A DNA stretch of 64,000 bases from Ophiocordyceps camponoti-saundersi (nom. inval.) (lineage: Eukaryota > Ascomycota > Sordariomycetes > Hypocreales > Ophiocordycipitaceae). Location: contig PDHQ01000054.1 of NCBI GenBank assembly GCA_003339415.1, positions 62,001-126,000 of the forward strand, given 5' to 3'. The notes beneath the pieces were generated by a model, which ran no database searches, was not told the origin of the DNA, and saw nothing but the letters and a program-made list of their open reading frames with translations. Positions 2,691-42,885 of this stretch are shown here, piece by piece. Numbering within the stretch: position 1 is the stretch's first letter; each line of letters starts with the position of its first letter. The position numbers were made by a program, and so were the translations under genes.

Positions 2691-2860
2691 TTATGCCCCT
2701 CCCTTATATAAGCTAGGGTTCTAATTTAGCTATATTTTTATAAGTATAACTTTAGTCGCCGAATATACTAAAAATTAATTACTTTTTATATATAATTTTT
2801 ATAAAATTAACTTACGCTATTTAGTATTTATATATACCGGTACTTATATATACTTATACT
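2691..2860. repeat. Junction unit J, second copy, with short S2 tail
   Basis: It matches the junction unit seen at about 106-235 and ends in a few degraded S2 units carrying an ACCGGTAC core (about 2,823-2,855). S1 satellite then resumes. Confidence 0.7.
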
Positions 2861-3900
2861 TAGTTATCTCTTATCGCTATATATATTAGGTAGTTATCTT
2901 CCGCTACTAAATACTTATTATAGTTATCTCCTACCCTTATATGCCCGCTATAATTATATCTTATAAATATCTCTCGCTACTATATGCCCGCTATAGCTAT
3001 CTTTTATAATTATCTCCTACTATTATATTTACTATAATTATCTTCTACTTTTATATACTTATTATAGTTATTATTACTATACTTATTATAGCTATCTTTT
3101 ACTATTATGCTTGCTATAGTTATCTCTTATAATTATCTCTTATTATTATACTTGCTATAGTTATCTCCTACCCTTATATGCTCGCTTTAATTATCTTTTA
3201 TAATTATCTCTCGCCGCTATATACCTGCTATAATAGTTATCTCTCGCTATTATATACCCGCTATAATAATTATTTTTCGCTATTATATTTATTATAATTA
3301 TCTCCTGCCCCTATATACTTATCGTAATTATCTTTTATAGTTATCTCTCGCCGCTATATACTTACTATAATAGTTATTTTTTACCGCTATACTTACTATA
3401 GTTATCTCTTATAGTTATCTCTTACTATTATATTTACTATAGTTATCTCCCGCCCTTATATACCCGCTATAGTTATCTCTTATAGTTATTTCTCACCGCT
3501 ATATACTTATTATAGTTATTATTACTATACTTACTATAATTATTTTCTGCCCTTATATATTTATTATAGTTATTATTATTATACTTATTATAGCTATCTC
3601 CTATTACTATACTTATTATAATTATCTCTTATAGTTATTTCTCGCTACTATACTTATTATAGTTATTTTTTATAGTTATTTCTCGCTGCTATATACCTGC
3701 TATAATAGTTATCTCTCGCCGCTATACCCGCTATAATTATCTCCCGCCCCCGTATACTTACTATAATTATCTCTTATAATTATCTCTTACCTTTATATAC
3801 TCGCTATAGCTATCTTTTATAATTATCTCTCGCCGCTATATTTATTATAGTTATCTCTTATAGTTATCTCTTACTCTTATATACTTATTATAGCTATTTC
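2861..3900. repeat. S1 satellite (ATCTC type), array 1
   Basis: Irregular tandem units of roughly 25-35 bp are built from TATAGTTATCTC and CCCTTATATACTTGC-like segments, with CGCTGCTATAT variants. It is heavily TA-converted. The array is interrupted exactly at 3,900 by an LTR element and continues after it at 5,677, so both sides belong to one array. Confidence 0.85.
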
Positions 3901-5676: not shown

Positions 5677-6842
5677 ATTTCTTATAATTATCTCCCGCCC
5701 TTATATACTTACTATAGTAGTTATCTCTTACTATTATACTCGCTGCTATACTTATTATAGCTATTTCTTATAGTTATCTCCCGCCCTTATATATTTACTA
5801 TAATTATTTTTTATAGTTATCTCTCGCTACTATACTTACTATAATTATTTTTTATAATTATTTCTCGCTACTATATGCCCGCTATAATAGTTATCTCTTA
5901 CCGCTATACTTATTATAATTATCTTTTATAGTTATCTCTTACTATTATACTTACTATAATTATCTCCCGCCCTTATATACCCGCTATAATTATCTTTTAT
6001 AGTTATCTTTTACCCTTATATACTTATTATAATTATCTCTTATAGTTATCTCTTACCGCTATATACTTATTATAATTATTATTATTATACTTACTATAGT
6101 TATCTTTTACCCTTATATACTTATTATAGTTATTATTACTATACCTACTATAATTATCTCCCGCCCTTATATACCCGCTATAGTTATTTCTTATAATTAT
6201 CTTTTACCGCTATATACCCGCTATAATAATTATCTCTCGCTATTATATTTATTATAATTATCTCCCGCTTTTATATATTTACTATAATTATCTTTTATAA
6301 TTATCTCCCGCCCTTATATACTTATTATAGCTATTTTTTATAATTATCTCCTACCTTTATATACTTACTATAGCTATCTTTTATAATTATCTCTTACCGC
6401 TATACTTATTATAGTTATCTTTTATAATTATCTCCCGCTCTTATATACCTATTATAGCTATTTTTTATAGTTATCTCCCGCCCTTATATATTTACTATAG
6501 CTATCTTTTATAGTTATCTCTCGCCCTTATATTTATTATAGCTATTTTCTACCTTTATACTTATTATAGCTATTTTTTACTACTATACTTACTATAGTTA
6601 TCTTTTACCCTTATATACTTATTATAGTTATTATTACTATACTTATTATAGCTATTTATTATAATTATCTCCCGCTATTATACTCGCTATAACTATCTTT
6701 TTATAGTTATCTCCCGCCGCTATATTTACCATAACTATCCCTTATTATTATACCCGCTATAATTATCTTTTACCTTTATATATTAACTATAGTTATTATT
6801 ACTATACCCGCTATAGCTATCTCTTACTATTATATACTTATT
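5677..6842. repeat. S1 satellite, continuation of array 1
   Basis: The same irregular TATAGTTATCTC / CCCTTATATA units as at 2,861-3,900 resume directly after the ATTTC target duplication of the inserted element. RIP damage is heavy and evenly spread, and no coding potential is seen. Confidence 0.85.
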
Positions 6843-7253
6843 AAAAAGGGGATTTATAACCTTTTCTTATAAGTCCTATAAGCTAAATTTAAGCGTACTT
6901 TTATAAGTATAGCTTAATTATAGAATATATTAGAATTTAATTACTTTTTATATATAATTTTTATAAAATTAACTTACGCTATTATATATTATTTAAATAA
7001 GAGCTTATATTAATAATATACGCGCTATAATTATCTTTTACTCTTATATATTTACTATAGTTATTATTACTATACCCGCTATAATTATCTCTTATTACTA
7101 TATACTCGCTAAAAGGGGGATTTATAACTTTTTTTTATAAGTCCTATAAGCCGAATTTAAGTATACTCTTATAAATATAGCTTAGTTATAAAATATACTA
7201 AAAATTAATTACTTTTTATATATAATTTTTATAAAATTAACTTACGCTACTTA
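6843..7253. repeat. Junction units J, third and fourth copies, with S1 between
   Basis: Two further copies of the junction unit (about 6,843-6,985 and 7,105-7,253) flank a short piece of S1. The last one runs straight into the long S2 array, as the first copy does at 235. This repeats the order S1-J-S2. Confidence 0.72.
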
Positions 7254-9086
7254 ATACTTATATATATATACCGGTACTTATATATACCGGTGCTTATATA
7301 TATACTAATACTTATATATATACCGGTACTTATATATATATACTAATACTTATATATATATTAGTACTTATATATATATACTAGTGCCTATATATACCGG
7401 TGCTTATATATATACTAGTGCTTATATATATATATTAATACTTATATATATACTAATACTTATATATATACTAATACTTATATATATACTAATACTTATA
7501 TATATACTAATACCTATATATATATACTAGTGCTTATATATACCGGTACTTAGTATATATATATTTATACCTTATATATATATACTAGTGCTTATATATA
7601 TATGCTAGTACTTATATATATACCGGTACTTATATATATATACTAGTACTTATATATATTAGTGCCTATATATATACCGGTGCTTATATATATATACCGG
7701 TACTTATATATATGCCGGTACTTATATATATATACTAGTGCTTAATGCTTATATATATATATTAGTATTTATATATATATATTAGTACTTATATATGCCG
7801 GTGCTTATATATATATACTAATACTTATATATATATATTAATACTTATATATACCGGTGCCCGGTATATATATACTTATACCTTATATATATATACTAAT
7901 ACTTATATATATATACTAGTGCTTATATATATACTAGTGCCTATATATGCCGGTACTTATATATATATACTAATACCTAAAGTATATACTAGTACTTATA
8001 TATATATTAGTGCTTATATATATGCTAGTGCTTATATATATACTAGTGCCTATATATACTAGTGCTTATATATATACTAGTGCTTATATATATATACTAA
8101 TACTTATATATATACTAGTGCTTATATATATATATTAGTACTTATATATATATACTAATACTTATATATATATACTAGTGCTTATATATACTAGTACTTA
8201 TATATATATACTAGTGTTTATATATATATTAGTACTTATATATATACTTGTGCTTATATATATACTAGTACCTATATATATACTAATACTTATATATATA
8301 TATTAATACTTATATATATTAATACTTAGTATATATATACTTATACCTTATATATATATATATAGGTATTTATATATATATACCGGTACTTATATATATA
8401 CTAATACCTATATATATATACCGGTGCTTATATATACTAGTGCCTATATATATGCTAGTGCTTATATATATATACTAGTGCTTATATGTGTGCTGGTGCT
8501 TATATGTGTGCCGGTGCCTGTGTGTGTGCTAGTGCCTATATATATACCGGTGCTTATATATATGCTAGTGCCTATATATATGCCGGTGCTTATATATATA
8601 TACTAGTGCTTATATATGCCGGTGCTTAGTATATATATACTTATACCTTATATATATATACTAGTGCTTATATATATATGCTAGTGCTTATATATATACT
8701 AGTGCTTATATATATATACCGGTACTTATATATACTAATACTTATATATATACTAGTGCTTATATATATATATTAATACTTATATATATACCGGTACTTA
8801 TATATATATACTAGTACTTATATATATATATTAGTATTTATATATATATACTAGTGCTTATATATACTAGTGCCTATATATATATACTAGTACTTATATA
8901 TATATATTAGTATTTATATATACTAGTACCTAGTATATATATACTTATACTTTATATATATATACTAATACTTATATATATATATTAGTGCTTATATATA
9001 TACTAATACCTATATATACTAGTACTTATATATATATACTAATACTTAGAGTATATACTAATACTTATATATATACCGGTGCTTAT
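7254..9086. repeat. S2 minisatellite, long array (left part)
   Basis: About 1.8 kb of S2 units, nearly all converted to TATATATA linkers with CCGGTACT, CTAGTGCT or TTAATACT cores. A short spared core with TGTGTG linkers lies at about 8,480-8,535. A distinct spacer (CTTAGTATATATATACTTATACC or a close variant) recurs near 7,549, 7,863, 8,326, 8,628 and 8,931, giving a higher-order period near 300-310 bp for most intervals. The array is cut at 9,086 by an LTR element and continues at 10,863. Confidence 0.88.
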
Positions 9087-10862
9087 TATAAAGGTCTTAC
9101 TAAAGCGATTATAGAAGTAAGCTAAAGTAGAATTATAATTAAAGCTATCGAAGAGAGGAAGAAGAGGGGAGAGAAGCCCCCCTCCTAAGCTAGCTATATA
9201 CCCCGCGCGATAACTAAGCGCTATCGGGAAAACCTAAATATATCCGCTATAATCCCTCCTATCTAGCTATAATTAGTTATAAACTAATCTCTTATATAGC
9301 CCCCTCCTTAAGCTAGCTAAGGAGGTAGGAATATAAGACGGAAAAATTATATATTACTACGCTAGCGAGATACTTTATATAATCCCTAGCTAATAGCCTA
9401 ATAGCCTCCGTAAAGATAAGGATAAGAGGGCGGAAAAGCTCCCTTATAGCTTAAGGAATTAAACTCCGATCTTTATAAGGAAAATTCTAATAAGCTTAAA
9501 ATCGTAATACTACTTAAAGTAAGAATTAATAAACTTATATATTAATAATAAAAACTTATTTATATAGCTAATATATAAGATTAGATAATACTATACTAGT
9601 TATAGGAAGCTTAGAAAATACTTTAATTATAATAAATAATAAAGCTAGCTATATATTTATCGCTATATACCGCTAACGCTAATTTATAAGCTAAAGCGTA
9701 ATATAATTACGGTATATATTTACTAATAAATTTACGCGCCTAAGCTACGCGCGGACTATCCTTATATAAGGTAATATAATAAAGCTAGAAATTACCTAAG
9801 CTATAATATTTAATATATACTTATCCCTCCTTACTTATTATCCCCTTAATTAAAATATTTTAAATTTACTTTTAACTACCCCGCTCCGCTTATAAAAAGC
9901 TCTAACTTTAATATCCTTATTTACTTACGAAGCTTCGGATAATTACGCTTAAAATAACTAATCTAATTATACTAATAATAACGCTAGCGCTTAATAATAT
10001 TAGAATAAAATTATATAAATACGATATTTATTAGGTTAGTAGAAAAGGGGGGCGGTAAATTAACTAATATATTAGGAATATTCCTAAAACTAAATATTTT
10101 ATTAAAGCCTCGGAGAAAGCTAGTAAAAGCCGCGTATATTATAAGCTAGTTTTTATAATCTAAGCGCTCTTATAGCTTCTTATATAGCCCGGATAAGAGT
10201 AAAATAATCTTAGTATAATTAAACTAATATAATAGTCTAGCTTAGAAAAAAGTATATTCCTACCTTATAATATATTCTCTAAAAGGCTTTAATAGCTTTT
10301 AATATATTTTAACTAAGGAAAAACCTACTTAGCGCTTTTTATAATTTTCCCTAAGAAGCTTAGAGATATACGCTAAAAAGGCTTTAAGCTAGTAAGAAAA
10401 ATCTATAGCTATAGTAATATATAGAAAGAATATCTACTAAAAGGTGCCGAGATAAGAAAAGATATAATAAAATTAGGACTTAGGCTCCCTAATTACGGCT
10501 TTATTAATTATAAATTTAATATATATAGCGGCTAGCTAAGAGTCTAGGTTAAAATAAGCTAAAAGCGGCTTTAATATAAATAGAATTTAATAGCGTTTTA
10601 TACTAAGATCTTACTTTTATATTTAGTTAGCGGTAAGAGGAGCTTTAATTAATATAAAGGTTTTACTAAAGCGACTATAGAAGTAAGCTAAAGTAGAATT
10701 ATAATTAAAGCTATTAAAAAAAGGAAGAAGAGGGGAGAGAAGCCCCCCTCCTAAGCTAGCTATATACCCCGCGTAATAACTAAGCGCTATTAAGAAGACC
10801 TAAACATATCCGCTATAATCCCTCTTATCTAGCTACGATTAGTTATAAACTAATTCTTTATA
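9087..10862 (-). mobile_element. Non-autonomous gag-only LTR retroelement, copy 2 (inverted)
   Basis: This is the reverse complement of the element at 3,901-5,676 and has exactly the same length, 1,776 bp. Its LTRs are 210 bp each (9,087-9,296 and 10,653-10,862). The 5-bp target duplication CTTAT lies at 9,082-9,086 and 10,863-10,867, and belongs to the S2 minisatellite into which it inserted. It is more heavily RIP-converted than copy 1. The gag-like frame lies on the minus strand, roughly 9,900-10,650, with its zinc-knuckle segment near 9,930-9,985. No polymerase is encoded. Confidence 0.9.
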
Positions 10863-10912
10863 CTTATATATATATTAATACTTATATATATACTAGTACT
10901 TATATATACCGG
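10863..10912. repeat. S2 minisatellite fragment between two insertions
   Basis: Fifty bases of S2 separate the gag-only element from Ty3/gypsy element D. They begin with the CTTAT duplication of the former and end with the ACCGG duplication of the latter. Confidence 0.85.
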
Positions 10913-24621: not shown

Positions 24622-25756
24622 TATAAGGGTTCGGCCTCCGGGCTATCTATAAGGAGGTGACTTTATTATTTAGAATAATTATAAAGAACTATAAAAAAGG
24701 GGTCGTGACGCTTAATAGGGGTAGGCGATCCGCGCGCGCGCCGCGCGCAGAAATAACTATAAGGGAAGCCTATATAAGATATACTAAAGAAGAGAGGTAG
24801 CGATAATTAGGTTAGAAGAGAGAAAAAAGAGTATATAAGTATAGTTTGCAGAGGTTTACTTTAAAAGTTATATTAAAAGCAAAGCTAATTCTTACCGAAT
24901 TATAATATTAGAAACTACTACGAACTATATATAAGGGGATTATAACTTAGGGGTAAACTCCTCGTAATACGAACTATAACTCCCGAGGTCTTATCTAGGA
25001 CCTTAGCGTAGTTTAAGGACTTACTTTCTATATCTAATAATTCTATTATAATTAAAAATATATTATATATTTTCCGACTAATTTCGGTATTATATTATAA
25101 TAGCTTTATAATACTTACGTAACCTTATAATTATTTATATATAATTATTTTATAACTTTATTATAACTATTTTTTTATTTTAAATAACTAGATATTTAAG
25201 TAAAATAGTTATAAATTATCGTAGATATATTATAATAAAGTAATAAAGAAAAGGTTATATATAAGGAAAATGCGTTATTAGTTATTAAAGCGCGCGCGTA
25301 ATTATAATAATAGTAATTATTCGTTATTAGTTCGGAGTAAGGTATAAGTAATTTTAAGCGCGTACTATTATTATTATAATTTTTTTATCTTATTATCTTT
25401 AGAAAGATCTTATCTATATCTTTATTTTAAGCTTATTTTACTACGTAACGATACCTCCCTTTAATACTATATTACGTAGTAAAGCTCTTAATAGCTTTTA
25501 TATATATTTTAATAAGAAAGAAAATACTCTTAATAGCGGCTTACTTAATAATAATATTCCGTATATTAATATAGAGATACTTTAAGGAATACTAAAAAAA
25601 ATAAGTATAGTAATATTAAAAAAGATTATAAGGATATTAAGCGGTAAGAGCTTAAAGCGTAAGTAATTTAGTATATATTTATAGAAGATTTACTAATATA
25701 TCGTAAAAATACTAAGTTAAGGTTCGCTAGCGATAATTATTAAAAAGAACGGAGAT

Positions 25757-28540
25757 AGTAAAACGCTAAAAAAAGCGTAAAAGCTAAAATCCGTAATAAC
25801 TAAGATAATTAACGTAGATAAGGAGACGATTATTCGCCTTAAGCTAGAAATAAGTAATAAAACGCTAAAAAAGGCGTAAGAGCTTATATCTAAGGCTAAA
25901 AATAGCCTAGCTAAGAAATAGTATATTAAGAGTAAAAGGGGTAAGGCTACTAGGAAGAAGGTAAAGGCGCTAGCTATAAAAAAGGTAGCTAAGAAAGAAA
26001 AGTTTTATATTAAGGTAAAGTAAGTAAGGTATTTAGCGTTAAAGCGTGCCGGGGTTATTAAGAAAATAAAGATAAAGAAAAAGATTTAAAGTAATAAAAG
26101 TAAGAGTTATAAAACCGATATTAGAATAATATACTAATAAGTTATAAAGGTTAAAAATATTAAATTTATTAAAAACTCTAATAAGGAAAATATAATAGTA
26201 ATCGATATAAAATAATAAGTAAAGGTAAAGGAGTATTATTCTTATATTAACCTTAATAAGTAAACTAAGAAGCGGTTTTTAGATTAGCTTTTCTTATTAG
26301 AAAAAGATAGCGGCTATCTAATAGTAATTAATATAGCGTTAAAATAATATATATTAGATATAATTACTATAAAAGGTTAAGAGAGAGCGGAGATTATAGT
26401 TATAGAATACTATATAAAGAAAATATAACTTATCTTAGCGCTTAGTAAATAAAATTAGCTAAGGTTATTTAGAAATCGATATTAACTTAGTATAATATCT
26501 ATAAAAGCTAAGAAATCGCTACTTAAAACCCGATATAAGAATCGCGGTAAGGGTAAATTTAGTAAGCTATAAAATAAGGAGATAGGAGGCTATATTTCGG
26601 AGAGTAACTTATTATATAAAATAGTCGTAAAAGTAATAATATCTTATAATTAAGATACCTCTATTATTATATATATAATAATATATAGCTATATTAGGTA
26701 AAAAGTAATATAAGAGTAAGTTATAGCGATTTATAAGGATTAGAGTATATTACGTAAAGTTCGTAATATAATCGCTAAGGAGTTTATTTAATATAAGGAT
26801 AAAAGCTAGATCCTTAATTTAGGAAATACTTTAACGTAAAAGACTTAAAGCTAAGTATCGTTAGAAACCCCTAAAAATACTAACGGAGACCTATTAATAA
26901 CTTACTTAGTAACTATTATAAAAAAGATTATTATAGCTTAAAAAGAAAAGGTAATATAGGAAATATATAACTTAATATTAAACTATATAAGTATAGTTAT
27001 AAAAAAAGGTAAGATACGCCTATTTAATAAAAACGCGATTATAATATAAGGAGTTCGTAAAATTATCGTAAAGGAGTTTAATAAGTATTACGTTAAGTAA
27101 GCGACTAAGGCGGAAAAGTCGCTAGGGGCGGCGAAGCTTATTAGAAGCGTAGCCTAAGTAAGGGGGAATTAAGGCTAAGTCGACGGAGATATAGCGGAGG
27201 TTACGGAAAAGTTTATTAAAGTTAAAAAAGAAAAGGACGATACTAACGATAATAAAGCTAACTAGGAGCTATAAATTAAGTATAAAAAGTAAACGGAGTT
27301 ATTTAATAACGAAGAGAAGAATACTAATAAAAGAGAGGTTTACGATAAAAATAATAATAATAATAAGTCTAATAATAAAGATACGCCTAAATAGAAGATA
27401 ACTTATATTTATAGCCGGGGTAAGGCGGGGGCGAAAAAGGAGGGATATACGAAAAGGTTTAAGAAAATATTTTATCTAAAGTAAAAGAAAATTATTTAAT
27501 ATAATCTTAATTAGTATATTAGGTATTTTTAGTTTTACTTAAAGGAATATATATTTCGCGTTATTAAAAATAAGATATTTAGCGTTAAATATTAATATTC
27601 TAAGATTAAAGCTTTTCGGTATAATTTTTATTAAAATAAAAAAGTAACTTATACGCTTATTCTTATTAGTATATTAGAAAATCGGTTTAACTATATAATA
27701 ATAATAAGGGAGCTAGGGTATATTTTTAATATAATATATTATAAGGCCGGTTATATAATTAAGAAAAATAAGTTAGCTTTATTTAAATAAGGGAGACTTA
27801 ACGTAGCTTAGATTACTTAATATTTAGTAGAGTTATTTATAGCGGTATTAACTACTTATATCCGGGAATATAAGCTTACGGGAATAAATAAAGTATTTAT
27901 CGAAGCTAGGGGGTAGTATCGGGGCTTAATATAGTAGTAACGGGCGCTATTAACTGCTAACTATTATACTTTTAAAATAACTACCTTAGAAAGGGGCTTA
28001 GAACTACTAAAGTCTTATCTCGATATAAAGGGGAATTTTTAGCTTATAAGAAAAGGAGAACTTATAATAATATATTAGAAATTATTATTATTACTTTATC
28101 TTCTTTTAGGGGATAAAGAATATATTAAGTAGAAGGCAGCGCTAGCTTATACGCGTAAGCGGATAGAGAGAGTTTTACGTAGCCTTATAAATAAAGAGTT
28201 TAAGCTATAAAAAATATCGATTTATAAATATTTTAATATATATACTTTATATAGTAATATTAACGCTTATAAATATATTCTAGTTAAAAAGATAAAGCGC
28301 GCTATAAAAGCGGAGAAAATAGCTTAGGAGGAGATAGCGTAAGTACTTTAAATTAAGAAAAAGCTACTAATAAGTTAAGAGTTAGGGGTAAAATATACTT
28401 ATAATAAAGATAAAAAAAACGAAGATATTCGATAAGTTCGTTAATTTAAACGGAATAAAAAAGCGTAATAAGAGTAAATATAAAAGTAAATAGCGTAATA
28501 AGTATATAGATAAGTAAGTAAGGTAAATATATAAATTTAA
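25757..28540 (+). pseudogene. Long antisense open frame in element B, unknown protein
   Basis: One forward frame can be followed without a shift from 25,757 to about 28,540, roughly 930 codons. All interruptions are TAA or TAG, which RIP makes from CAA, CAG and TGG. Upstream, about 25,450-25,750, another frame may continue it after a shift. The reading is very rich in Lys, with Arg/Lys/Gln-rich coiled-coil-like segments at both ends and an acidic, Asn-rich middle near 27,230-27,390. I recognise no family; no reverse transcriptase, integrase or recombinase motif is evident. It lies between the end of pol and the 3' LTR on the opposite strand, convergent with pol. Some plant gypsy elements such as Grande carry antisense frames in this place. 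Confidence 0.65.
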
Positions 28541-31042
28541 AAGAATTATACTTTCTTATATTTCTTTATTATTTTTTAAAATTTATTAATAAGTTATAAT
28601 ATATTTACTATATTATTAATATTAACTTATTAATTATACTCTAATAGCTATTTTTTTTATTTAATTAGGAAATAAACTTTACTATTTAGTATTTTTTAGC
28701 TTTTAACTTCTTAAATTTCCTATTTCCTATTATCCTCCTCTAAGTCTAGTATAGGGAGAGAGGTAAATAAGTCTTAGGGGTTTTAAAGGTGCTAAGGTTT
28801 AAAAAGAGAGATATAAAAAATATCGTAAAAATAGGCGTATTTTATAAGTAATACGAGATAGTACGCTTAGAAGCTAATTTTCTAGAGAACGCGAAATAGT
28901 CTTATATAATAAGGTAGGAGTTTTTTTTTCTCGCTTTTAAATTTAATATTCTTAGTTAAGAGGCCTACTAGATCGCCTATCTTAAGTACTAAAAGTATAT
29001 AGTTTTTATTATAATACTTTGCTTATTTTTTAATAGCGTATTTTTAATAATTCGCTAGGTATTAGCGTAAATTTACTATTTTATTAATCTTAGCTTTAGC
29101 TTTAAGGTTTACTTTTAAAGGAGTATCCGCGGAAATATAAAATTTTAAGTAATAACTATAAAATACCTTATTAGGTAAGATACCCGTTATTAAGTACTTT
29201 ACGTTATTAATTATAAATTAAGTAATTAGTAATAGTTAAGGCTATAATATACGTTTATTATTAATAAAGTAACGAAAGTAGTATTATATTACCTAATTTA
29301 TTTATTTTATTTACTTATCGGTTTAGGGGTAAAATATAGTTAATAATTATCTCTTAATCTTAGATAAAAAATAGAGGTTTAACTAAAAATAACTAGTAAA
29401 TAAGCTACCCTTATCGGATATAATACCTTATAAAGGACCGTAGCGAAGTTCTACCTCCTAGTAAAAAAGCTTAGCTAAGTCCCTTACTTTAATTATATCC
29501 GAAACTAAAAATAAGAGCAAAAACTTTATAAATCGATTAATAATTATAAGAATATTATTAACTTATTTATTTAGCTATATAAACTTTAGTAAACTAATAG
29601 TAAAGTTTAGAGATAGTTTAGCTTATAGTTATAATAAAATCGGTAACGAATTTAATTTACTATATAGGCGATATTTTTAGGAAGCGACCCCTTAGTAAAT
29701 TTAATAAGACCTAATATAGGATTTAATATCTTTATATATTACCTCTTAGTAGAATTTCCTAGTAAGGAGGTCTTAGGTACGTTCCGCACTAAAGTAACCC
29801 GTTAATAAGTTATTATAATATAATAATAGTAGTTCTTACTTTAAAGCCGCTTCTTATAGTATTATAATATAGTCCTTTTAATAGATAAGACTATTAGAGT
29901 TAACTATTTAAGGACCTTACTTTCCTTATTAAGTCTCGTTAAGCTTAGTAGCTTTTTAATATTATAACCGGAGATCTTCGCCTTAACTTCGCTATAATAA
30001 AATAAGGAGGGGAGTCGATATATTAGGCTTTAGGGGCTATTTTTATACTAATACCTTTTTTAAAAGTTTAGCCCTTAAGGCGTTAAGTTAAGCCCGAGGT
30101 TATTAAAACCTAATATAAAAAGTATATAGCTATTTTAAGGTAGGGGTTTTAATAGTTAGTTTAGTCTAACGCTATAATATACTTAACGTATAGTATATTA
30201 TTAACTATCTTCTTACGTAGAATATCTAATCTTTTTATTATAAAGCTTAATTTAAGTATATATTATAGTTTTCTTAAGGGGCTATTAGTAGGATTATTAC
30301 GGCCTAGTTTATAGAGAATATAGAAATTAAAAAGTAATAAGTAAATTACTTAATATTATTAATAATAGTTTAAGTCTAATTATATTATAATTAACTATAA
30401 GTTTAAGTAATCTAAAATTACCTTAACCGGGAACGTTAATCTTTTTACGTAATAGCGCTAATACTTAAATAATTTAATAATAGCGAAGAATTCTTTTTTA
30501 GCTACCGTATAGCGTACTTTAAAGCTATTAAATTTTTATAACTAGTAGGCGATAATAAGATATTACCTTTAATTATCGTATTATAAGAGGATATTAGCTA
30601 TAATAAAGTTTAATATATTAGTCTTAATCTTTATTTACTTTTTAAAATTAAAATATATTAGTAAAGGGGCTTTAGTAAATATTTTTTTAAGTTTTAGAAA
30701 GGCGGATTATTAGAGGGCGTTAAGCTCGTATTAGCTTAGTTTCTTCCTATTTTCGCTCCTTTTAAATATATTAATTAGGGGAGCGACGATATTAGAATAT
30801 TAGAGAATAAAACGCTAATAATAGTTATAAAAGCTTAGAAAAATCTAAAAGTTATAAAAAAAGCTTAGTGTTAAGTGGTCTTTATACACGTACGTATAGG
30901 TGAGGGAAAGCAAAAGTAACCTAAATTAAGTATAATTAAAGATAGATACCCTTCCTTTATCGTACGAGGAAGAGCGGCTATATAGCTAAATAATACTCTA
31001 CTTCTATACCCTCCTTCTCCTTATCTGAGCTACCTCCTACCT

Positions 31043-31069
31043 CCTAAGTCGTACGAGGCACGACTTAGG
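31043..31069. repeat. LTR stem-loop of element C
   Basis: CCTAAGTCGTAC (31,043-31,054), loop GAG, then GCACGACTTAGG (31,058-31,069) form a 12-bp stem with one mismatch that is a RIP-type change. The same structure, with a different RIP-type mismatch, is in the other LTR at 38,027-38,053. A conserved hairpin of this sort in an LTR may have acted in the transcript (R region) or in transcription. Confidence 0.6.
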
Positions 31070-32499
31070 TAGTAATATATATTTCGTTAGAGGCTTCCCT
31101 ATATCCGTGCTATCCTCTATATATATATCGTATAGCAGATATAAAGGGGTATAGAGAGATAATATCTAATACTCGACTTTTTCTTTTTATAAAAAGATAT
31201 ACTAAATAAAAAGGTATCGTACGAAGAAAAAAAAACTCCGTCTTCTTAAAGGGTAGACGTTTTTAGAGAAAAAATAGTCGTACGATATTAAACGAGTATA
31301 TAATCGAAAAAAATCTGCAAAGGTAAATAACGCCCGCAGTGCCGTGGTAAAAAGAGATAAAGAAAATAAAGCTGCCGGCCGAAAAATAAAAGTCGGGTTA
31401 TTATATAATCCGATCCGTAATACGTTTTTATAGAGTTTTACTATAAAGGTCTTTTATAGTTATAATACTAAGAAAAATAGGTAGTAAGCCGACTTTCTAT
31501 AACCTTATGCTAAAAATACTAAAAAATATTACGAAAAATAGGAATTAAAAAATCGGATTCTGCCGCCGCTTACCGCCTTTAGAGGGGTATAAAAACCCCT
31601 CCTCGCTCCCTCTCTCTCTCTCTCTCTTTCTCTTTCTTTCCTCTTCTTTCTTTATTAGGCTAATTAACGAAGATAACGACGATAACTAGAAAGATCTTTA
31701 ATAAAGATTAATAAGTTATACGATATACTTAAGTCGTTCTTATTAATAGTTATTAGTTATACGATATACCTCCCTATCCTAATAGCGTTATAGCTTATCG
31801 ACCTAGGTTTTTCTAGGTCTATATACTTTATAGTAAGGAGGATAACTAGCGCTTTATATAGTAGATATCCCTAAATATAAGAAAGAAAAGTCTAGCTATC
31901 GTATAATAGTAGTGCTAATAAGAGAGTAATAAGCGGAGATCCGATTAGCGGCTATACCGTCGTCCGATATTTTTATTCGCTTAGATAATACTTAAGATCC
32001 TAAGCATATTAAGGCGATTATTATCTAACGCCTAAGTTATTTTCTAGCAGTCCTTCTTATAAGTTATAGCAGGGTAGTAGTAGAATTATACTACGTTTAT
32101 ATTAGAAATCCCTACCTATTCGATATATATCGGATAAATAGTAACGGGGCCTATATTACTTATATATAGCGGTCCTATACGATAAGATATTTTTTCGTAT
32201 AACGGGGCTAAGCGTTGCAGACTCCTAGGCCGGCACCTTATACCCTAATAACTACTCCTATAAAGTCGCCCGACGGCCGGCGGCGGGGACGGGTAATAAT
32301 AATATTAAGCGGAGCGCCTCCTAACGCGGAGGAGTATATTACTATCTCGGACGATAAGTAGTAAGGTACGGGGGTAGAAAAGAAGTAATAGTAGGGTCGG
32401 ATAACGAGGAAAAAGAGAAAAGAAAAAAAAATTAGGTATTAGGGACTTATAGCTTTATTTTAAAATTAAGCGTAGGGGTTAGACGATACCTGGAAAAAA

Positions 32500-35400
32500 T
32501 TAATAGTAATTTTCGCATAAGAATAATAGAAAAAAAACGTAAAAATATAAAAAAAATAGGAAGGTAAGGATAGAGGGTCGGACGAAGTAAAGATATAGGA
32601 AAGAAAAGAGTATAAGTTTTATACGACCTAGGTAGGTTATTAGATAGTAGCTTTAATTCGTAACTTATAGGAATTCGTAGAAATTAAGGTTAATAAGGCT
32701 AAGTTAGGGCTATCTTTAGTATAAGCGTCCGCCGGGTTATTCTTACTATTAATTTATCGTATTTCTAAAATTTCCTTACGCTCGTATAACTTACGAATAG
32801 CTATAATATTAATTATTAACCGTTTTTCTATCGTTAAGCTAAGCCGTATTAGGTAGTCGTATAACGAACGTAAGTCTATATAGAGAATAAGGGGGATCGG
32901 AGGCGTGCTTAGGGATCGTACGATAGCCTAAATAGTCGAGTAAAAGGCTAGGCTAATATTAACGCCGTTTACTATACCGTAAAGTTCGCTTATTAGGATA
33001 CTTTAAGTAACCCTTTTACACTTCGTAAATATCTAGTAGAGGATATTACCTTATACGACGAATAAGTTTGAAAACCGGTCTTCTTTACTAAGGATAATTA
33101 AGGTGCTAAGCTATAAGGTAAGGTCCCTATTATTTGCGAACGACCTATCTGTGAAAATAAATAGTTTCGTACGAGATAGGTTAAGTGGAATAAACCGTAA
33201 ACCGCGGGCAGTATTATTAATCTACTATTAGATACGTTTATTAAGGGCTAAAATATCTTACGTAGAAGGATCGGTTACTTAAGCGGCTACCGTAAGGTTA
33301 TATAACGCCTCCGGTTAATAGGTAGAAGTAATATATACTCCCCGGGCTCGCTAGCTAATAAAGTCCTACGGGGCAGTATCGGCGGTTAGGTTAATAATAT
33401 AAAGGCCCTTTACCTATCCTTTCTATATAAGAACGATATTATATAATTCGCGCGTAATATAACTACCGTTAAAGTTAATAGATAAGCTATTAGTAAGGAA
33501 TATTTTAGGTTTCGCACGAAGCTCTGCCCGTTTTAACTTATTATCCTTAAGTTTAAAGAACATATCGGATATAAAAGAGAATATATCGTCCGTTTATAAG
33601 CCCGTTATACTGAATAAGTCGGGGCTAGCTATTATAAATAAAAGATATAGGTCGTACGATAAGGGCGTTATATAAAGGTTTATATAATAATAATTATAGT
33701 ATATCTTAAACTAGTATAATCTTAATTCTACTAGCCCGTATAGCGGCTTTTTAATATATAAAAGAGTATTAGGTAAATATTAATCTTATAGTTTTTTAGG
33801 AAGGTATACGTATATCGTATAACTTAAAGGATCGGCAGACTACGTATACGCTTACGTAATATCTCGCAGTTCGCCTTAGTAGTTATACGACTTTATAAGG
33901 GTAGGTCTAAGGGTAAGAAGAAGGCGCTATAATATGCGTAGAATTATAGGTAATTACGTAAATATTTCTTCCTTGCCGTTATTACTATACCCTTAAACGA
34001 CGAGCTGGGATTTCTCGTAAGGTCTATCGTTTAGATTCTTTACCTCTTATACGAGACGCGTTTTAAAAATACGTTTTATAAGGTCCGAGGAAGGGTTATA
34101 TCGGACAAAGGTAAAGACTTCCTATATAAAAAGGGTATTAATTTCCTTACGGTTAGAGGCCTCGAATAATCGTCCTAGGGTAGTAATAATACCTTATTAT
34201 CGTAGTTATACGGTAAGTGCGTAGTTATCTTTTTCCTTCGTAGTAACGAATACGGAGGGAAAAGCTTCGTACGAGTCTTTATCGTATAGGGGCATAATCG
34301 GGATTTCGAACTATACCTTTTTCTCTATAAGTATAGTAGGGAGGGAGCGGAGATAAGGTTTAACCTATATCGTATAAAATCTAGTTAGTCTTATAGGGAG
34401 TTTAAGGATAACGTCCTAGCCGTCGAAACTAGAAATATAGAAAAGACCTTACTATTTATCTTTTTTACGCTAAATAAGAACTTCGCTTTAAAGGGGAAAT
34501 AATAAGATATCGTATAAGTTAGGTCCGTTTCGGGTATAGAGAGCGCGTAAAATATCCGCTTAAGCCTTAATTTATTATACTTATATTATAGCGCGCTTAA
34601 TCGCTTAGGCTCTTATAGTAATATTAAGGGCTAGGGGCGAGTTATACGAAATATAAGGGTAAGCGCTAAAAATAAAAAATATCGGGATAAGACTATCTAG
34701 TCCGGCTATATTATTAATAGCCTTAACGGCTATCTAAAAGATAGTTATATTATCGGTCTTAGTGCTAATTTCTTATCGTAAGATATTATATACTTGCCTA
34801 AGAGGGGCGTATATACGTTTAACCTTACTAATCGCCTAATACGCTTCGACGGGCACTTCCTTATATATAGTGCCGAGTAGTTTCGCGTTCGTACGAAACT
34901 TTAGAGAGGAAAAGTTAGTTCCGGCGTCGTAAGAGATAATATCTAGTAAGCCTTAGTATATATAAATCTAGCACTTATATAAGGCGTTCTAAGCGTCTAC
35001 CGCTAATATATTTTATACGAAGGCGGCTACTTAGAAAGATATAGCTTCGTTAATAGCGTATAGGACCGGCTTACCGTAAAGGTAAAAAATATTAATAACT
35101 AGTAAGTAGTTAAAATCGCAGTTATCCTTAAGGGAGAATTTAAATCGCCGAGGTTTTAAGTTATATAATTAGTATTAGTAATATAAATATTAGATTAACT
35201 TAAGGGCTATAGGGGTTATATCCGAAAAGCTAGCCTTTTTTAGTAAGTTATAAAGCTATTATATATAGGGGTAGCTAAAATATCGGTAAAGCTATTATAA
35301 CTCTTATTCTATATAGTATAATATAGATTTTTATTTAGAGATATTAAAGAATAGATATCCTTATTTCCTAATAATAGGGATCGTTATACTATCGTATTAT

Positions 35401-37500
35401 ACGATAATATCCCTTATATTATCGTAGAAAGTACGGAGGCGGTTAGTATCTTTAAGATAGAAAAGGAACGGGGTAGTAGTATTAAGAATATAATATAGGA
35501 CTTTACCGAGGGGGTTTTATACGATAATAGTTCCGATCGGCTAAGTAGGTTCTAAGGAGCTAAAACGAATTATATTCTTAGTCGGGGTCTAGTTAATAGT
35601 CGTATAAGGGTATTCCTAGATATAGGCTTCTGCTTATAGTTTACTTACGGTTAAGATTTACGTAGCTCCTATATCTTAGAGCTCGCCTTAATATATTATA
35701 TAATACGTATCGGAAAAGAGGAATTATTCCGCGGGAACCGATAGGGCCTTTAGTTAGTAGATATTATCGCTTATAAGGCGGTATATATAGGCTACTATAG
35801 TGAAAAACAAAACCGCGTTTTCGCCGCTAATAATTTCTTCTTTAATATTAGAGTCTTTATCGTACGATTATAAAAACTAAAAATCTTATTTATTAGAACC
35901 TTTATATAATAGGAGGAATACGCTAAATTCTTCCTCCGTAAGAGGGTCCTAGCTAGTTTTTTTATAACTAGTAAGGTACTGCTTACGTGCGCGTTAGATA
36001 TCGTCTAACTTATAGTTTATAAACTAATATCTTTCCTTTTTATATATAAAGTACCTTCGTATTATACGAGGTTAGAACCGGCGTCGCTATAAGGAAAAAT
36101 ATTATATAGGGGGCGATTATTATTAGCGGGGAGTAAAAGAAGATTATCTAGGGTTTATATAATACTTATTATAATTAAGGTAGCGTTATTCGATAAAGAA
36201 CTAGTTAGTTATTTTATCCGTAGTAATAGTAAAGGAGGAACGAAGGCAATTAATAAATATTTCGTACGATATATCTTAGAATATTATAGCTAATTCGAGT
36301 TCTAAAACGCCGCGATAGGCTCGTACGATAATAGTAAGAAGTTACTTCTCTTCTTAATAGTTAGATCTAAGAGCTTATTAAATAAGTCGGAGTTTATTAA
36401 GGAGGGTATCGAGTAAATTTATTATAGTTTTATCGGGGTTTTCTTATCGTACGATATTAAAAAAAAGAGTGGTCTAATCTATCTAATATAATAAATAGTT
36501 CGTACGAGTATTAAAGTGCGTATCTAAAAAAGTGTAAATTTTATCCTATCTTTTATCTAATCCGATAAAGTATAAATAATAGTCCTAAGCTTTATCTAAA
36601 AAGATATCTAGAAAAATAGCGTAGAATTAATCTTCCGTTATACTAATACGGGAGTAATAGCTAATAAAAATCCTAGCCTTATCGATTAGTATATCGTACG
36701 GCCGCCCTATATAGTTCTAATCTTTTCGCTAACCCTTAAGGAAGGCGGTAACCTTATCTAGGGAGATTAGTCTATTTGCTACCTTTCGTATTAGTAATAA
36801 TATATAGACTTATACGATACCTATTAAGGCTTAATTTATCGGTTCTAGGAGGGTCTAAGTCGGAGTTGCCGAAGGTAGCTATATATTTAAGTCGTATAGA
36901 GTAGTTAACTTCTACGTAAGGGTCGTATAAAATAGGGGTTCTGCTAAGATACTTCGTAGTAGCTATATTAAGATATATCTTAACTTAGGGGGCTATGCTA
37001 AGTATAAAGCTTATATTATACTATCTAAAAGAGTTAGTTCGGAGGAGGGGGGGTAGTCTAACTATATAAAAGGGGCTCCTTGCGGGTTAGGGCGTAAAAC
37101 GTTTTCCGGTTTAGTCTTAAAAAGTCGTATAAAGCGTTTAATTAATATGCCGTTTCCGATAAGCAGGACGTATCGTGCGACTATAATTTAAGTTAGTTTT
37201 TTTAAGAATATATAGTAAATATATTTTAGCTAGTAGTAGGTCTATCCTTAAAGTTCCGATTAGATTATACGAAGAAGGTTTTCCTTATAAAGGTTAAAGT
37301 ATATAATATCGTATATCTACTAAGTAATAAACGTTATTAATTCGATCTTATCGGGAGGTTATATAAGGTTAGGTTATATATCCTAATAGAGCGAGTTCGT
37401 ACTTTAAGTCTAGATATAAGGGTTAACTTTACTTCCTTTTATTATTTCGTCGTACGAAGCTAAAGTCTCGTTTATTACCGTTATTATAGTTAACGTATTT
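32500..37500 (-). pseudogene. gag-pol remnant of Ty1/copia element C
   Basis: The minus strand at about 34,330-34,900 reads as the integrase C-terminal region of fungal copia polyproteins, recognisable by an A-V-K-A-I-N-x-x-A-G block and a later V-K-P-Y-L. About 33,640-34,200 reads as copia reverse transcriptase, with L-R-D-I-T-Q-A-Y and K-K-P-L-Y-G-L blocks. Integrase before reverse transcriptase is the copia order. Stops are TAA/TAG of RIP type throughout. Confidence 0.8.
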
Positions 37501-40500
37501 GCTACTTCCTATTTAACTTCTAAGGTTATAGAAGCTATATTATCGTTATTACGTTTCCGGAACGCTATTAAAAATAATATCGTATAACTAATAAAAAGTA
37601 CTAGGCTAAATATAGCTCTTCGGTAAGGACTTTATTATTAGTAAATATCGTACGTTACCTTAATCTTTTAGTCTTAATAGCAGCGCCGGGCAAAAATAGC
37701 TCTTCGGTAAGAACTAATATTAAGAAGTAGGGTAAAAGTATAGGTATTAGTCGATAGCGGGCATAGGGGCTCTTCGGTGTCGTACGATACCTATCTCGTT
37801 ACTCTTACTAATCTATAGTTAACTAATAATAACTAGTATAACTACTAATTAGTATTAAGTAGTCTTTATATACGTATATATAGGTAAGGGAAAGTAAAAG
37901 TAACCTAAATTAAGTATAATTAAAGATAGATACTTTTCTTTTATCGTACGAGGAAGAGCGGCTATATAGTTAGATAATACTCTACTTCTATACCCTCCTT
38001 CTCCTTATCTAAGCCACCTCCTACCTCCTAAGTCGTACGAGGCATGACTTAGGTGGTGATATATATTTCGTTAGAGGCTTCCCTATGTCCGTGCTGTCCT
38101 CTATATATGTATCGTATAGCAGATATAAAGGGGTACAGAGAGACAATATCTAACACTTAGTTTTTCTTAGTTAGCTATTACTTATATCCTTTTTAAGTTT
38201 ATAGAAATATTATATATACTAACGATATATCTAAAAAACTCGATTATTTCTTAATAAAAGATATATTTAGTAATATTTACGTATAAGTTAGCTTCTCGGA
38301 GTTTTACTAAAATATCGTAAAAATATTAAGTATAATCTTTCTTTATTTTAAAGTAAATTAATATATTATCTAAATAAATAATATAGATAATATTTACTAA
38401 AATTTTAAGTACTTAATTAATATAATATTAGAAAATTACCGGGGCGTTTATTAAGCTAAAAAAAATAATAAGATACTCGAAATAGCCGTATTATAAGCGA
38501 AAGGTAGTTTTCTACTTATTACCTTTTTTAATATAAATATAATAATAGGCGTGCTAAAGGTTAATTTTTAAGAAAATTATAGCGCCTTAAACTTAGTCTA
38601 TAATCTCTAAAATAAGTAGGAGAGGGTAACGATTTTTAATTATTACCTTATTAAGACCCCGGTAATTTATATAAAATTATAGTTCCCTATCTTTCTTAAG
38701 GACGAAGAAGATAAGGGCGCTACCTAGGCTTTAAGATTCTTATATCTAGCTTTTACTTAAAGCGTTATTAAAGTATTCTTAAAGTACTTTAAGTTTAGTT
38801 TAGGAAAAAGGGTAAATAGAACCTTAAGAAAGCGTAGCGTTATTAACTAGATTAATAGCGTAGATAGTATTTTTCTTATTAAGAAGAATTAAAGCCTTAA
38901 ACTTTAAGAATATATCTTCGAATCTTATAAGAGTTAGGGGGATTTCGATTTCTAATATTAGTAATAGCTTAAAGTTTTCTTTATTTATAAATATAGAAAG
39001 TATTAGGTTTAATATAACCTAGAAAATATATAGATATTATTTAGCCTCTTAGATAAATTTCTTAGCGTTAAGGAGGTAAGCTTATAGTAGTTAAGATAAT
39101 TTATATTACTATTTATAAATATTAGAGGATAAGTAGATTTATTTAGCTATTAAAGTAAGTATTTTTAAAATAATAAGGTTATTATTTACTACTATACTAA
39201 GGACGCCGAAATAGTAATAAATTAGCGTCTTTTCTATTTTATTTATATTATAAAAGGTAATTAATACCTCTTAAAGTCTATTAACTAAGGCGTATTTACT
39301 AATACCTCTTACGAGGAGAGAAAAGTTATTATCTAAGAGTAATAATATATATTTTTTTATAAAAGAAATATTAATAAAATCGATTTTATTATAAATATTA
39401 AATTTAATAAATACCGGAAAAGGGGTAAGTCTTATTTAAAATATATTAGAAGTTTTAAAAGTTCCTTCTATCGAGAATATTAGTAGAGAGACTTTTATAT
39501 TAACGTTTTCGAGTTTTTTAAACTTTTCTTTAATAAGCTAGCTTAAGTTTATTTAGTCTTCGCGGCCTTAGCTTTCTCTAAGTATTTTAACTAATAGTTA
39601 GATTCCTTATAGCTTTTCTTTTTATAATAAGAATAAGTTAAAATATCCGATTTTTTATTAAATAGGTTCCTTTTATCCTTATTTTCCCTAAAGCGGTTAA
39701 AACCGCCGTTTTTATTATAAAGCTTTAAGAAACTATTATTATAATAATAACCTAAATTAGAGTTAGTCCGTTATCGTTTTATAAAATCTTTATAGCGATA
39801 TTAGTAAAACTTACCTAAGCTAGAATCCTAAATCTATTAAGCTAAGGAAACTATTTCTTAATAATTAAGAGTATTTAGCTAATATTATTTAAGGATTTTA
39901 GCTTATAGCTAAGGGAGTAATTAGGAGAAGTAATCTAAAGTAAGTTTTTTAGAAAAATAGGCGTTAAAATATCTTTTTAAACTTTCTAAATAAATATAAA
40001 AATTATAAGGTATCTAATTATCTTATTACTTAGTATCTTAGAATATAATAACTATAATTATAATTTAATTTCTAAGATTTTTTAGAAAGTTATAAGATTA
40101 TTTTTTAAAAGTAAGCTAATTACTTATAAGTTACGTTTATTCCTTAATAAATAAGCTATATTTATAAAACTTTTAATAAATATAAAAGTTTAAATATATA
40201 TTATCTAAAGCTTTAAAAATCTTATTTTTATTTTTACGGTATTTCTTAAGTATTATAAGAAAGGAGTTTTTAAGGTCCTTAAGCTAATCTTAGTATTTAT
40301 AAATTATAAGTTACTTTTTTAATTTAATAATATTCGAAAGTTTAATATCTTTATTTTAACTAAAGTCTAATATCGATAAGTAGCGCTTACGCTAGGAACT
40401 TATAGCTAAGTTAGCGGGGTTTCCTCTAAAAATAAGAATATCCCGAGGATTATTAATTCCTCGTTTTTAAAAGAAGTTAGTAATAAAGTTCCGGAATATC

Positions 40501-41208
40501 TCTTCCTAAGAAATAAGACTATATTAAGTAGCTTTTAGGGTTCTAATAAGGGGGGCCGTATTAGTTTAAGCTAAATAATCCGAAAAGGGAGTAGAGGAGA
40601 TATCTAAGAAACGGTCCTTCGCCTATAGAGGTTAGTTCTAGAAGCGAGTTATATAAAGTATAATAAAGCGTATAGGAATCGGTACTAAGTTAAAAAGGAG
40701 AAGTTTAAGCTAAAAATAAGTATCTCTTATAAGAAAAATTAGAGTTATAAGGGAAGCTTATATAAGATATATTAAAGAAAAGAGGTAATAATAATTAAGT
40801 TAAAAAAGAGAAAAAAGAGTATATAAATATAATTTATAAAAGTTTACTTTAAAAGTTATATTAAGAGTAAAGCTAATTCTTACTAAATTATAATATTAAA
40901 AACTATTATAAATTATATATAAAAGGATTATAACTTAGGGGTAAACTCCTCGTAATATAAACTATAACTCCTAGGGTCTTATTTAGGACCTTAGCGTAGT
41001 TTAAGGACTTGCTTTCTATATCTAACGATTTTATTATAATTAGAAATATATTATATATTTCCTAACTAGTTTCGGTATTATATTATAATAGCTTTATAAT
41101 ATTTACGTAACCTTATAGTTATTTATATATAGTTATTTTATAACTTTATTATAATAACTAATTACCTTACGTAACTTAGCTATTTAGGCATAGCCTAAAT
41201 CCCTTATA

Positions 41209-41543
41209 TATACCGCTAATTTTAATAATATTATATCTAATAAGAATAGGTGCTATAGTAAATATAAATACTTTTCTTTAGTATAGGTTTAAGCTTATCC
41301 GATTCTAGCACTATTATGCCGCAGGCAGGCGTCTTACTATTAGATATTTAGAGGCGTAGGAAAAGAATAAGGAAGAGTTAATAGATAGGTTAAAAGACTA
41401 GAAAAATCTTAATAAATTATTTAGTATCTTCTTCTGCAATTAATGCCGCATATATATTACCCCGTAGAGGCTCTGCTATTAGTCTATTGCTTATAAGTTA
41501 TAGGATCACTATATACAGTGTTAAAACTAAGGGGCAAAAATCA
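41209..41543. other. Transition from RIP block to euchromatin
   Basis: The first 250 bases are still TA-rich. About 41,305-41,450 reads on the + strand as a short coding-like relic with charged, helix-forming residues and two or three TAG/TAA stops, but no family can be named. From about 41,460 the composition returns to normal over less than 100 bases. Confidence 0.5.
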
Positions 41544-41629
41544 TGGAGAAACGGGGAATTGAACCCCGGACCTTCTACAGACACTTCGCAAATGCAAAGC
41601 AGATGTGATAACCCCTACACCATTTCCCC
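41544..41629 (-). tRNA. tRNA-Ala(UGC) with 13-nt intron
   Basis: The reverse complement folds as a complete tRNA. The acceptor stem is GGGGAAA/TTTCTCC with the G3-U70 pair that marks alanine tRNAs and discriminator A. The D arm is GTGT...TCAC, the anticodon stem TCTGC/GTAGA, and the T arm CGGGG-TTCAATT-CCCCG. Anticodon TGC is preceded by TT and followed by A37. A 13-nt intron (TTTGCGAAGTGTC) sits at the canonical 37/38 position. The gene is divergent from the MAPR gene that starts 210 bp away, and it lies at the edge of the RIP-mutated block, where a Pol III gene could act as a barrier. Confidence 0.93.
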
Positions 41630-41838
41630 GAAGCAGCTTGGCAGGGGTATTCCTTATTACAAAGTATACGTTCAGTCAACTTTTTCCCATGGAATAAGCT
41701 GAGTTGCATCAGCAACATAAATCCTACCCTACATCGGCTTTTCAGCCCCGTGCTTCAACCTCAACCGGACCTCGGCTCCCAACACCGACCCGACACCAAC
41801 CCATCATCACACACACCCTTCAACAACTACAAGCAACA

Positions 41839-42442
41839 ATGGAATACGTCGAGCACCGACTGAGTCAAGAATCCCTCGAAAGCGCCCAGTACGTCCCTCG
41901 CGCCTCAAATCCAAGAATCGAAGCAAAGCTAACCAAAAACCTCGCCCGAAAGCACAACGGCCATCCTCACACCGCTAAACCTCCTCCTCACAACCGCCCT
42001 CCTCTACACAATCTACAAAGCGATCTCGCCCACAGCAAGCCAGTACTCGAAACCGACTCCGGCGCCTCCACCGATCCTCTTCCGAACCTACACGCCAAGG
42101 ACGCTCCTCCCCTTCAACGGGAAGGACTCGCCGGAAATCTACCTCGCCGTCCGGGGCCGCGTCTTCGACGTCTCCCGCGGGGCCTCCTTCTACGGGCCCG
42201 AGGGTCCCTATGCCAACTTCGCCGGCAGGGACGCAAGCCGTGGCCTCGCCCTCGGGAGTTTCGATCCGGATGTCTTGACGGACGACCTCGACGCCCCGCT
42301 TGACCCCCTCCATGATCTCGATGCCTCTGAGTTGGAGGCTTTGACCGGTTGGGAGGAGAGGTTTTCGGACAAATACCATGTCGTTGGGAGGCTTGTTTCT
42401 GTTGATGACTTTAAAACTTTGGGAAAGGACCGCCCGGCTTGA
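41839..42442 (+). CDS. dap1: Membrane-associated progesterone receptor-like haem-binding protein (Dap1 family)
   Basis: Exons are 41,839-41,888 and 41,953-42,442 (179 residues). The 64-nt intron has a GTACGT donor, a GCTAAC branch site at 41,928-41,933 and an AAG acceptor. An in-frame TAA lies just upstream of exon 2, so the short first exon is needed. After an N-terminal membrane segment and a proline-rich linker comes a cytochrome b5-like MAPR domain, with L-P-F-N-G-K-D, then the F-Y-G-P-E-G-P-Y-x-x-F-A-G-R-D-A-S-R-G block whose tyrosines bind haem axially in the family. Dap1 proteins bind haem and support cytochrome P450 enzymes such as Erg11 of sterol synthesis at the ER. It is convergent with the next gene, 443 bp apart. 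The family assignment is firm; the P450 role is inferred from yeast. Confidence 0.88.
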
Positions 42443-42885
42443 TTGCGGGCCCAACTTTGTTTATCTTCGTCCACGCAGTTACGGCATTATTTACGTTGAT
42501 CATTGCTCTTCCCCCCCTTGTCACGACAATCCAACTTGGCCTCAACAGCATATCCTAGTCATCAGCAAAAAGGTGGAATAGCAAGCTGCTCGCTGTTGAA
42601 CCCGCTATTCACATCGCCACTCTCTGCCTACCTACCACCTAGAAAAAGCTTAAAGCCCTTGGGGGTGCCCCGTAGTCATGTACAACAGAAAATGATCTTG
42701 AAAACGGAAAGCCAACGCCGTGCAATGCTCAATTACAAAACTGGGCCTTTTGAAAACGCTTAAGACCTCCAACGCTATACCAGGTCCAGGCCCAGAAAGA
42801 AAGAAAGATGAGACAAGAAGGGGAAGAGAAGAAGGAGACTGACGCCGCCGACGACGACGACAGGCAGATGAAGACCAACAAACCA
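42443..42885. other. Convergent intergenic region
   Basis: This is the space between the stop codons of two convergent genes, presumably their 3' untranslated ends. It has GACGAC-type triplet repeats near 42,841-42,862. Short open frames here are unconvincing. Confidence 0.6.

What the first reader, a model, noticed from the sequence alone, without database searches (positions are those of the whole stretch)
25166..28560. A 930-codon antisense open frame between pol and 3' LTR of a Ty3/gypsy element
The + strand of element B stays in one frame from 25,757 to about 28,540 if TAA/TAG are read as RIP products of Gln and Trp codons. It is antisense to and convergent with pol and makes the element unusually long (about 9.1 kb). 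The Lys-rich protein matches nothing I recognise. It may be a captured host gene or a retroelement accessory protein.
Basis: partly seen in the sequence, partly recalled or inferred. Interest (0 to 1): 0.75.

Follow-up and report, generated by a model that had tools for sequence, protein, structure and literature searches.

The report
Antisense gene in a dead retrotransposon
A fungal jumping gene, now destroyed by the fungus's own mutation defence, carried a large extra gene on the opposite strand from its main genes; this layout is already known in fungi and plants, but here two very different versions of the extra gene sit in almost the same jumping gene.

Summary
The observation largely holds. 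Element B (24758 to about 41153, minus nested element C; about 9.1 kb) is a RIP-saturated Ty3/gypsy retrotransposon with pol on the - strand and a protein frame on the + strand between pol and its 3' LTR. Stop counts alone do not prove the frame: two - frames have fewer stops (63 each against 72). Comparison does. Transversions between diverged copies peak at third codon positions; the + frame matches a distant second family as protein; in relics that escaped RIP, 10 of 20 residues opposite window stops are Gln or Trp, against 5 of 378 elsewhere. The frame probably starts about 100 codons earlier. It is no private insertion: 33 of 35 pol places checked have it alongside. The layout is that of antisense aORFs in plant Grande/RIRE2/Retand and of brtn in fungal Boty-like elements; homology to BRTN could not be tested. 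Unusual here: gag-pol cores only 0.4-0.9% apart in transversions carry antisense genes that do not align as DNA (24-32% protein identity). The antisense gene and gag-pol core therefore have different histories. Function is inferred only.

The parts
24758..25165 (-). Left LTR of element B (its 3' LTR, as pol runs on the - strand)
   Evidence: match to 40746-41153; 44 of 408 positions differ, no transversion
25166..25405 (+). Stretch between LTR and antisense frame; candidate promoter/leader (inferred)
   Evidence: still alignable as DNA to the second family (5.4% transversions)
25457..25756 (+).
   Evidence: same-frame protein similarity to L037 (37% over 158) and L036 (38% over 74); no third-position excess of transversions there
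25757..28540 (+). Antisense accessory frame, 928 codons with 72 stops
28560..30864 (-). 3' part of pol: RNase H about 30389-30706, integrase zinc-binding about 29707-29847, SH3_Tf2-1 about 28792-28977
30865..38168 (.). Nested element C, inserted in pol of B; not part of B
   Evidence: 321-base direct repeats, 91.9%
38169..40745 (-). Rest of the gag-pol region; reverse transcriptase about 38248-38670
40746..41153 (-). Right LTR of element B (its 5' LTR)

Best explanation
[quoted passage not shown] Shown: the + frame is a protein frame conserved across families; it is a standing part of this lineage; its stops are largely RIP products; the antisense gene and the gag-pol core have different histories, best explained by recombination between related elements. 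Inferred: it was transcribed from its own promoter next to the LTR (about 25166-25450) and made a basic, nuclear, nucleic-acid-binding protein that acts on the element's own RNA or DNA. The inference rests on its Lys-richness, on an acidic stretch followed by an RG/RGG-rich stretch and a Lys/Arg cluster in a relic that escaped RIP and in a less damaged distant copy, and on analogy with Grande gene23.
For: Pol on the opposite strand. Transversions by codon position 83/88/225 over six diverged copies; third position highest in 18 of 19 aligned pieces of the diverged loci L014-L028. Protein match of the + frame to the second family and to relics, stronger than any - frame. Q or W opposite 10 of 20 window stops in relics against 5 of 378. 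The same convergent layout in the distant family C133. Frame next to pol at 33 of 35 places. Conflict between gag-pol core and antisense gene. RG-rich and Lys/Arg-rich stretch in L032 and P0001.
Against: Stop counts do not single out the frame. In the 12 near copies L002-L013 transversions show no third-position excess. Synonymous fractions tie with one - frame, and mean BLOSUM of the other changes slightly favours that - frame (0.01 against -0.23). No Pfam, PDB or collection relative, so homology to BRTN is untested. Nothing here shows transcription, translation, localisation or binding; RG and Lys/Arg motifs are judged from memory.
Confidence: 0.75

Rival explanations
1. The conserved protein is on the pol strand: an env-like third gene read in the same direction as gag-pol, whose mirror image looks like an antisense frame.
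For: Two - frames have fewer stops; one shares the wobble positions, ties on synonymous changes and is slightly ahead on BLOSUM.
Against: Protein matches to L029, L030 and L031 are clearly stronger for the + frame (107, 107, 94 bits against at best 28, 61, 63); with composition correction only the + frame hits L029 and L030. Purines at codon position 1: 68% in the + frame, 43% in the rival, 51-57% in B's own pol.
Confidence: 0.05
2. A captured host gene, carried antisense.
For: GC-rich fragments that escaped RIP (L031, L032, L034) match the frame and no pol was found beside them in the 0.8-2.2 kb read.
Against: These fragments are short and broken; no full-length unbroken homologue was seen in the genome (six-frame, intron-blind); two ancient versions both sit in the same retrotransposon layout.
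Confidence: 0.06
3. The antisense transcript, not the protein, is what matters: it makes double-stranded RNA with the pol transcript and tunes silencing.
For: Convergent layout; proposed for plant aORFs (PMC7264820).
Against: Amino-acid-level conservation between families whose DNA no longer aligns well shows that the protein was selected; both roles are possible together.
Confidence: 0.1
4. The deep split of the antisense gene is not exchange but very fast divergence in place (arms race).
For: The stretch that does not align (25406-28496) nearly coincides with the coding region, while LTR, upstream stretch and pol end align at 3-5% transversions.
Against: Similarity orders conflict: B is 0.4% from L037 but 4.7% from L015 in core b, whereas its antisense frame aligns with L015 (4.2%) and not with L037. 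Fast divergence alone does not give that conflict.
Confidence: 0.2

Closest known systems
Boty-like retrotransposons with the antisense gene brtn (Botrytis cinerea, also named for Sclerotinia; Zhao et al. 2011, seen only as cited in PMC7264820, PMC8365987, PMC4227169)
   Same: Fungal Ty3/gypsy element with an additional antisense frame between pol and 3' LTR; RIP-mutated copies common
   Different: No BRTN sequence was available, so homology is untested; Boty pol has a CHROMO domain (PMC4227169), which here is only a sub-threshold hit in a distant copy
Plant antisense aORF-3R elements: Grande (gene23), RIRE2, Retand (TRP28), PvRetro13
   Same: Position, antisense orientation, presence in most copies, probable nuclear/nucleic-acid role
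   Different: No TRP28 (PF04195) or other Pfam domain; chromodomain/Tf2-like pol in a fungus
Env-like third genes of LTR retrotransposons
   Same: Same position, pol to 3' LTR; exchange of the third gene between backbones (recalled for env)
   Different: Env-like frames run in the sense direction; this one is antisense

Membership tests
Ty3/gypsy LTR retrotransposon | Two LTRs and a short duplicated target | tested here: met
   LTR pair 87.6%; by eye a 5-6 base duplicated target, present once in the uninterrupted LTR of element A
Ty3/gypsy LTR retrotransposon | Pol order reverse transcriptase - RNase H - integrase | tested here: met
   on the - strand; in the C133 copy
Antisense aORF between pol and 3' LTR (aORF-3R) | Antisense, between pol and 3' LTR | tested here: met
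Antisense aORF between pol and 3' LTR (aORF-3R) | Present in most copies of the family | tested here: met
   33 of 35 pol places whose relevant end is covered
Antisense aORF between pol and 3' LTR (aORF-3R) | Conserved as protein | tested here: met
Antisense aORF between pol and 3' LTR (aORF-3R) | Own transcript/promoter (shown for Grande) | not testable with these tools
   No RNA data
BRTN of Boty-like elements | Protein sequence homology to BRTN | not testable with these tools
   No BRTN sequence at hand; three collection searches found no relative at all, without a positive control
BRTN of Boty-like elements | Chromodomain at the end of pol | tested here: inconclusive
   Chromo 14.7 bits, E 0.029, below the 25.1 cut-off in L029; none in the window
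Env-like gene | Sense orientation to gag-pol | tested here: not met
Captured host gene | Homologous stand-alone gene in the host | tested here: inconclusive

The most novel reading that the evidence does not exclude
The antisense gene is an exchangeable, allele-like module: at least two ancient versions (24-32% identical as proteins) ride on the same, recently shared gag-pol core in one genome, kept apart by diversifying selection, for example because the protein marks or protects its own element against related elements or against host silencing.
Probability: 0.25. Interest if true: 0.7.

Novelty: new member of a known kind. Interest (0 to 1): 0.45.

Why it matters
Antisense accessory genes of LTR retrotransposons have no established function (PMC7264820, passages of PMC11963269). 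This case shows, in a fungus with strong RIP, that such a gene is conserved as protein across families and that its history differs from that of the gag-pol core. That points to a separable role and gives a genome with tens of copies of two versions in which to ask why both persist.

Tried and rejected
Stop counting as proof of the frame: rejected, two - frames have fewer stops. Absence of TGA as support: rejected, RIP saturation explains it. Single-transversion synonymous test for the strand: tied, replaced. Captured host gene and private nested insertion: not supported. Homologue searches with an alignment of 8 copies, the least damaged distant copy read and a relic that escaped RIP: no hits; no positive control for that collection was run, so these negatives are weak. 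Viral-contig scan: 25 pattern matches, none a relative. Structure prediction was not run: the tool lists which sequences it takes, the genome copies are not among them, and the one RIP-damaged window sequence alone would fold poorly. The organism could not be named.

Rows left out of counts: the 83/88/225 sum uses six loci (L019, L020, L024, L025, L026, L028) of the fifteen diverged ones; the rest are described in the report. One search used 41 of the 44 rows (three short second pieces left out), 30 of 51 rows and 16 of 58 rows (pieces that repeat the same copy, and small ones), and skipped 6 pol places whose end next to the frame was not covered. One search's Fisher test used 3870 as core length where its own table gives 3862.

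Papers: PMC7264820, parts 1 and 2 of 3 of the text plus passages; PMC8365987, PMC4227169, PMC5987419, PMC3248453 and PMC11963269, found passages only; all others only as search listings. Zhao et al. 2011 was not seen, only its citation. I saw no mention of exchanged antisense genes in the listings; that is not a full literature check.

Full report
What is there. GC content is 21-37% over 6-41 kb of the window and jumps to 56-68% beyond 42 kb. The AT-rich part holds nested LTR elements: A (LTR from 18321; its 3' LTR is split at 24759 and resumes at about 41153), B inside A (LTRs 24758-25198 and 40746-41186, 87.6% identical as matched), and C inside B (repeats 30865-31185 and 37849-38168, 91.9%). 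B without C is about 9.1 kb. L037, a copy of the second family without an inner insertion, spans 473-9722 of its locus. B's two LTRs differ at 44 of 408 positions, none a transversion, as expected if RIP alone changed them after insertion.

Orientation. With X at stops, Pfam finds RVT_1, RNase H, Integrase_H2C2 and SH3_Tf2-1 in - strand translations of B (nine translations) and nothing in nine + strand translations. The + frame at 25757-28540 is therefore antisense to pol and convergent with it.

RIP. The stretch 25199-28640 has 1 CA and 3 TG dinucleotides in 3442 bases; L001-L010 hold 0-6 CA and 0-7 TG in about 2840 bases each. TGA is absent from all six frames, so 'only TAA/TAG' is no evidence for this frame.

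Is the frame more than chance? By stop count, no: 72 of 928, against 63 of 928 and 63 of 927 in two - frames. By comparison with other copies, yes. (a) Transversions, which RIP does not make, fall at codon positions 1/2/3 as 83/88/225 over six diverged loci. Over all diverged loci L014-L028 the third position is highest in 18 of 19 aligned pieces; singly, L015 (34/35/47, p 0.26) is not significant and L014 (26/17/38) is weak (p 0.016). The 12 near copies L002-L013 show no third-position excess, as expected if most of their few transversions arose after the copies died, but this is a result that does not help. (b) Strand: one - frame has the same wobble positions; synonymous fractions tie (0.197 and 0.198) and BLOSUM scores slightly favour the - frame. 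Protein matches decide: + frame 107, 107 and 94 bits against L030, L029 and L031, best - frame 61, 28 and 63; with composition correction only the + frame hits L029 and L030. Purines at codon position 1 are 68% in the + frame, 43% in the rival and 51-57% in B's pol. (c) Of ten copies that span the frame, four have only 3n indels relative to the window (L002, L003, L004, L007), one has compensating indels besides 3n ones (L009), five have frame-shifting indels. (d) GC-rich relics that escaped RIP (L031, L032, L034) have Q or W opposite 10 of 20 window stops, against 5 of 378 other positions, Fisher p 2e-11; two alignments to L031 overlap at residues 740-782, so a few positions count twice. A fourth such fragment, L033, is only a weak match (E 8e-4; not seen).

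Extent. The upstream translation in the same frame matches the second family upstream of its own frame: 37% over 158 residues in L037, 38% over 74 and 51% over 45 in L036. The part from about 25457 on looks like coding sequence; the part before 25405 also aligns as DNA and may be leader or promoter. Against the extension, codon-position counts in 25199-25756 show no third-position excess.

Copies. DNA searches of the genome listed 48 matches to the frame and 44 to pol; both are capped, so lower bounds. Of 35 pol places whose end next to the frame is covered, 33 have the frame within 600 bp on the expected strand: 20 of the window's type (including the diverged group II) and 13 of the second type. 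C9 and C10 do not within that distance; both carry a piece of the frame further away.

Two versions. The second type (C133 = L029/L035/L036, C355 = L030, C399 = L037 and others) has the same layout, with pol domains on one strand and the frame on the other. Its gag-pol core differs from B's by 23 transversions in 3862 bases (14 of 1621 in 29247-30868, 9 of 2241 in 38169-40409). The ends differ by 3.2-7.4%, and between 25406 and 28496 no DNA match was reported at the cut-off used (E 1e-8); as protein the frames are 24-32% identical. Group II copy L015 shows the opposite: 4.7% from B in the part of core b that it covers (824 bases), but an antisense frame that aligns at 4.2%. C210, a copy of B's own type, repeats B's pattern against both L037 and L015. 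Such conflict calls for recombination between related elements. Whether the antisense gene also evolves unusually fast is open: the island that does not align nearly coincides with the coding region.

What it does. No Pfam, PDB or collection relative was found, with the weakness that no positive control was run for the collection. The window's protein is Lys-rich (160 of 928). In the relic L032 and the less damaged C133 copy an acidic stretch is followed by an RG/RGG-rich stretch and a Lys/Arg cluster, motifs that I recall as typical of RNA-binding and nuclear proteins. I favour a nuclear, nucleic-acid-binding accessory protein with its own antisense promoter, as reported for Grande gene23 (PMC7264820). 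My confidence is about 0.9 that it is an antisense accessory gene of the element and about 0.4 in that function.

Comparison with the known. [quoted passage not shown] the Boty gene is brtn (PMC8365987, PMC4227169), and similarity to BRTN is mentioned for a Monilinia transcript (PMC5987419). The layout is the same; sequence membership in brtn could not be tested, and the chromodomain that Boty pol has is only a sub-threshold hit in L029. I file this as a new member of the antisense-aORF class, with the mosaic of two antisense genes on nearly one gag-pol core as its unusual feature.

Noticed in passing
25199-28640 and loci L001-L010: RIP is close to complete: almost no CA or TG dinucleotide is left, and copies differ in which strand lost further C.
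   Followed up: partly
L031 (C722), L032 (C111), L034 (C177), weakly L033 (C110): Short GC-rich fragments related to the antisense gene that escaped RIP, with no pol found beside them; old relics or remnants of something else.
   Followed up: partly
41000-42500: Sharp border from AT-rich (about 23% GC) to GC-rich (56-68%) DNA.
   Followed up: no
1492-1965 and 2057-2725: Tandem arrays with 62-base and 44-base units.
   Followed up: no
3885-5130 and 9633-10878: Long inverted repeat, 1246 bases per arm, 83% complementary.
   Followed up: no
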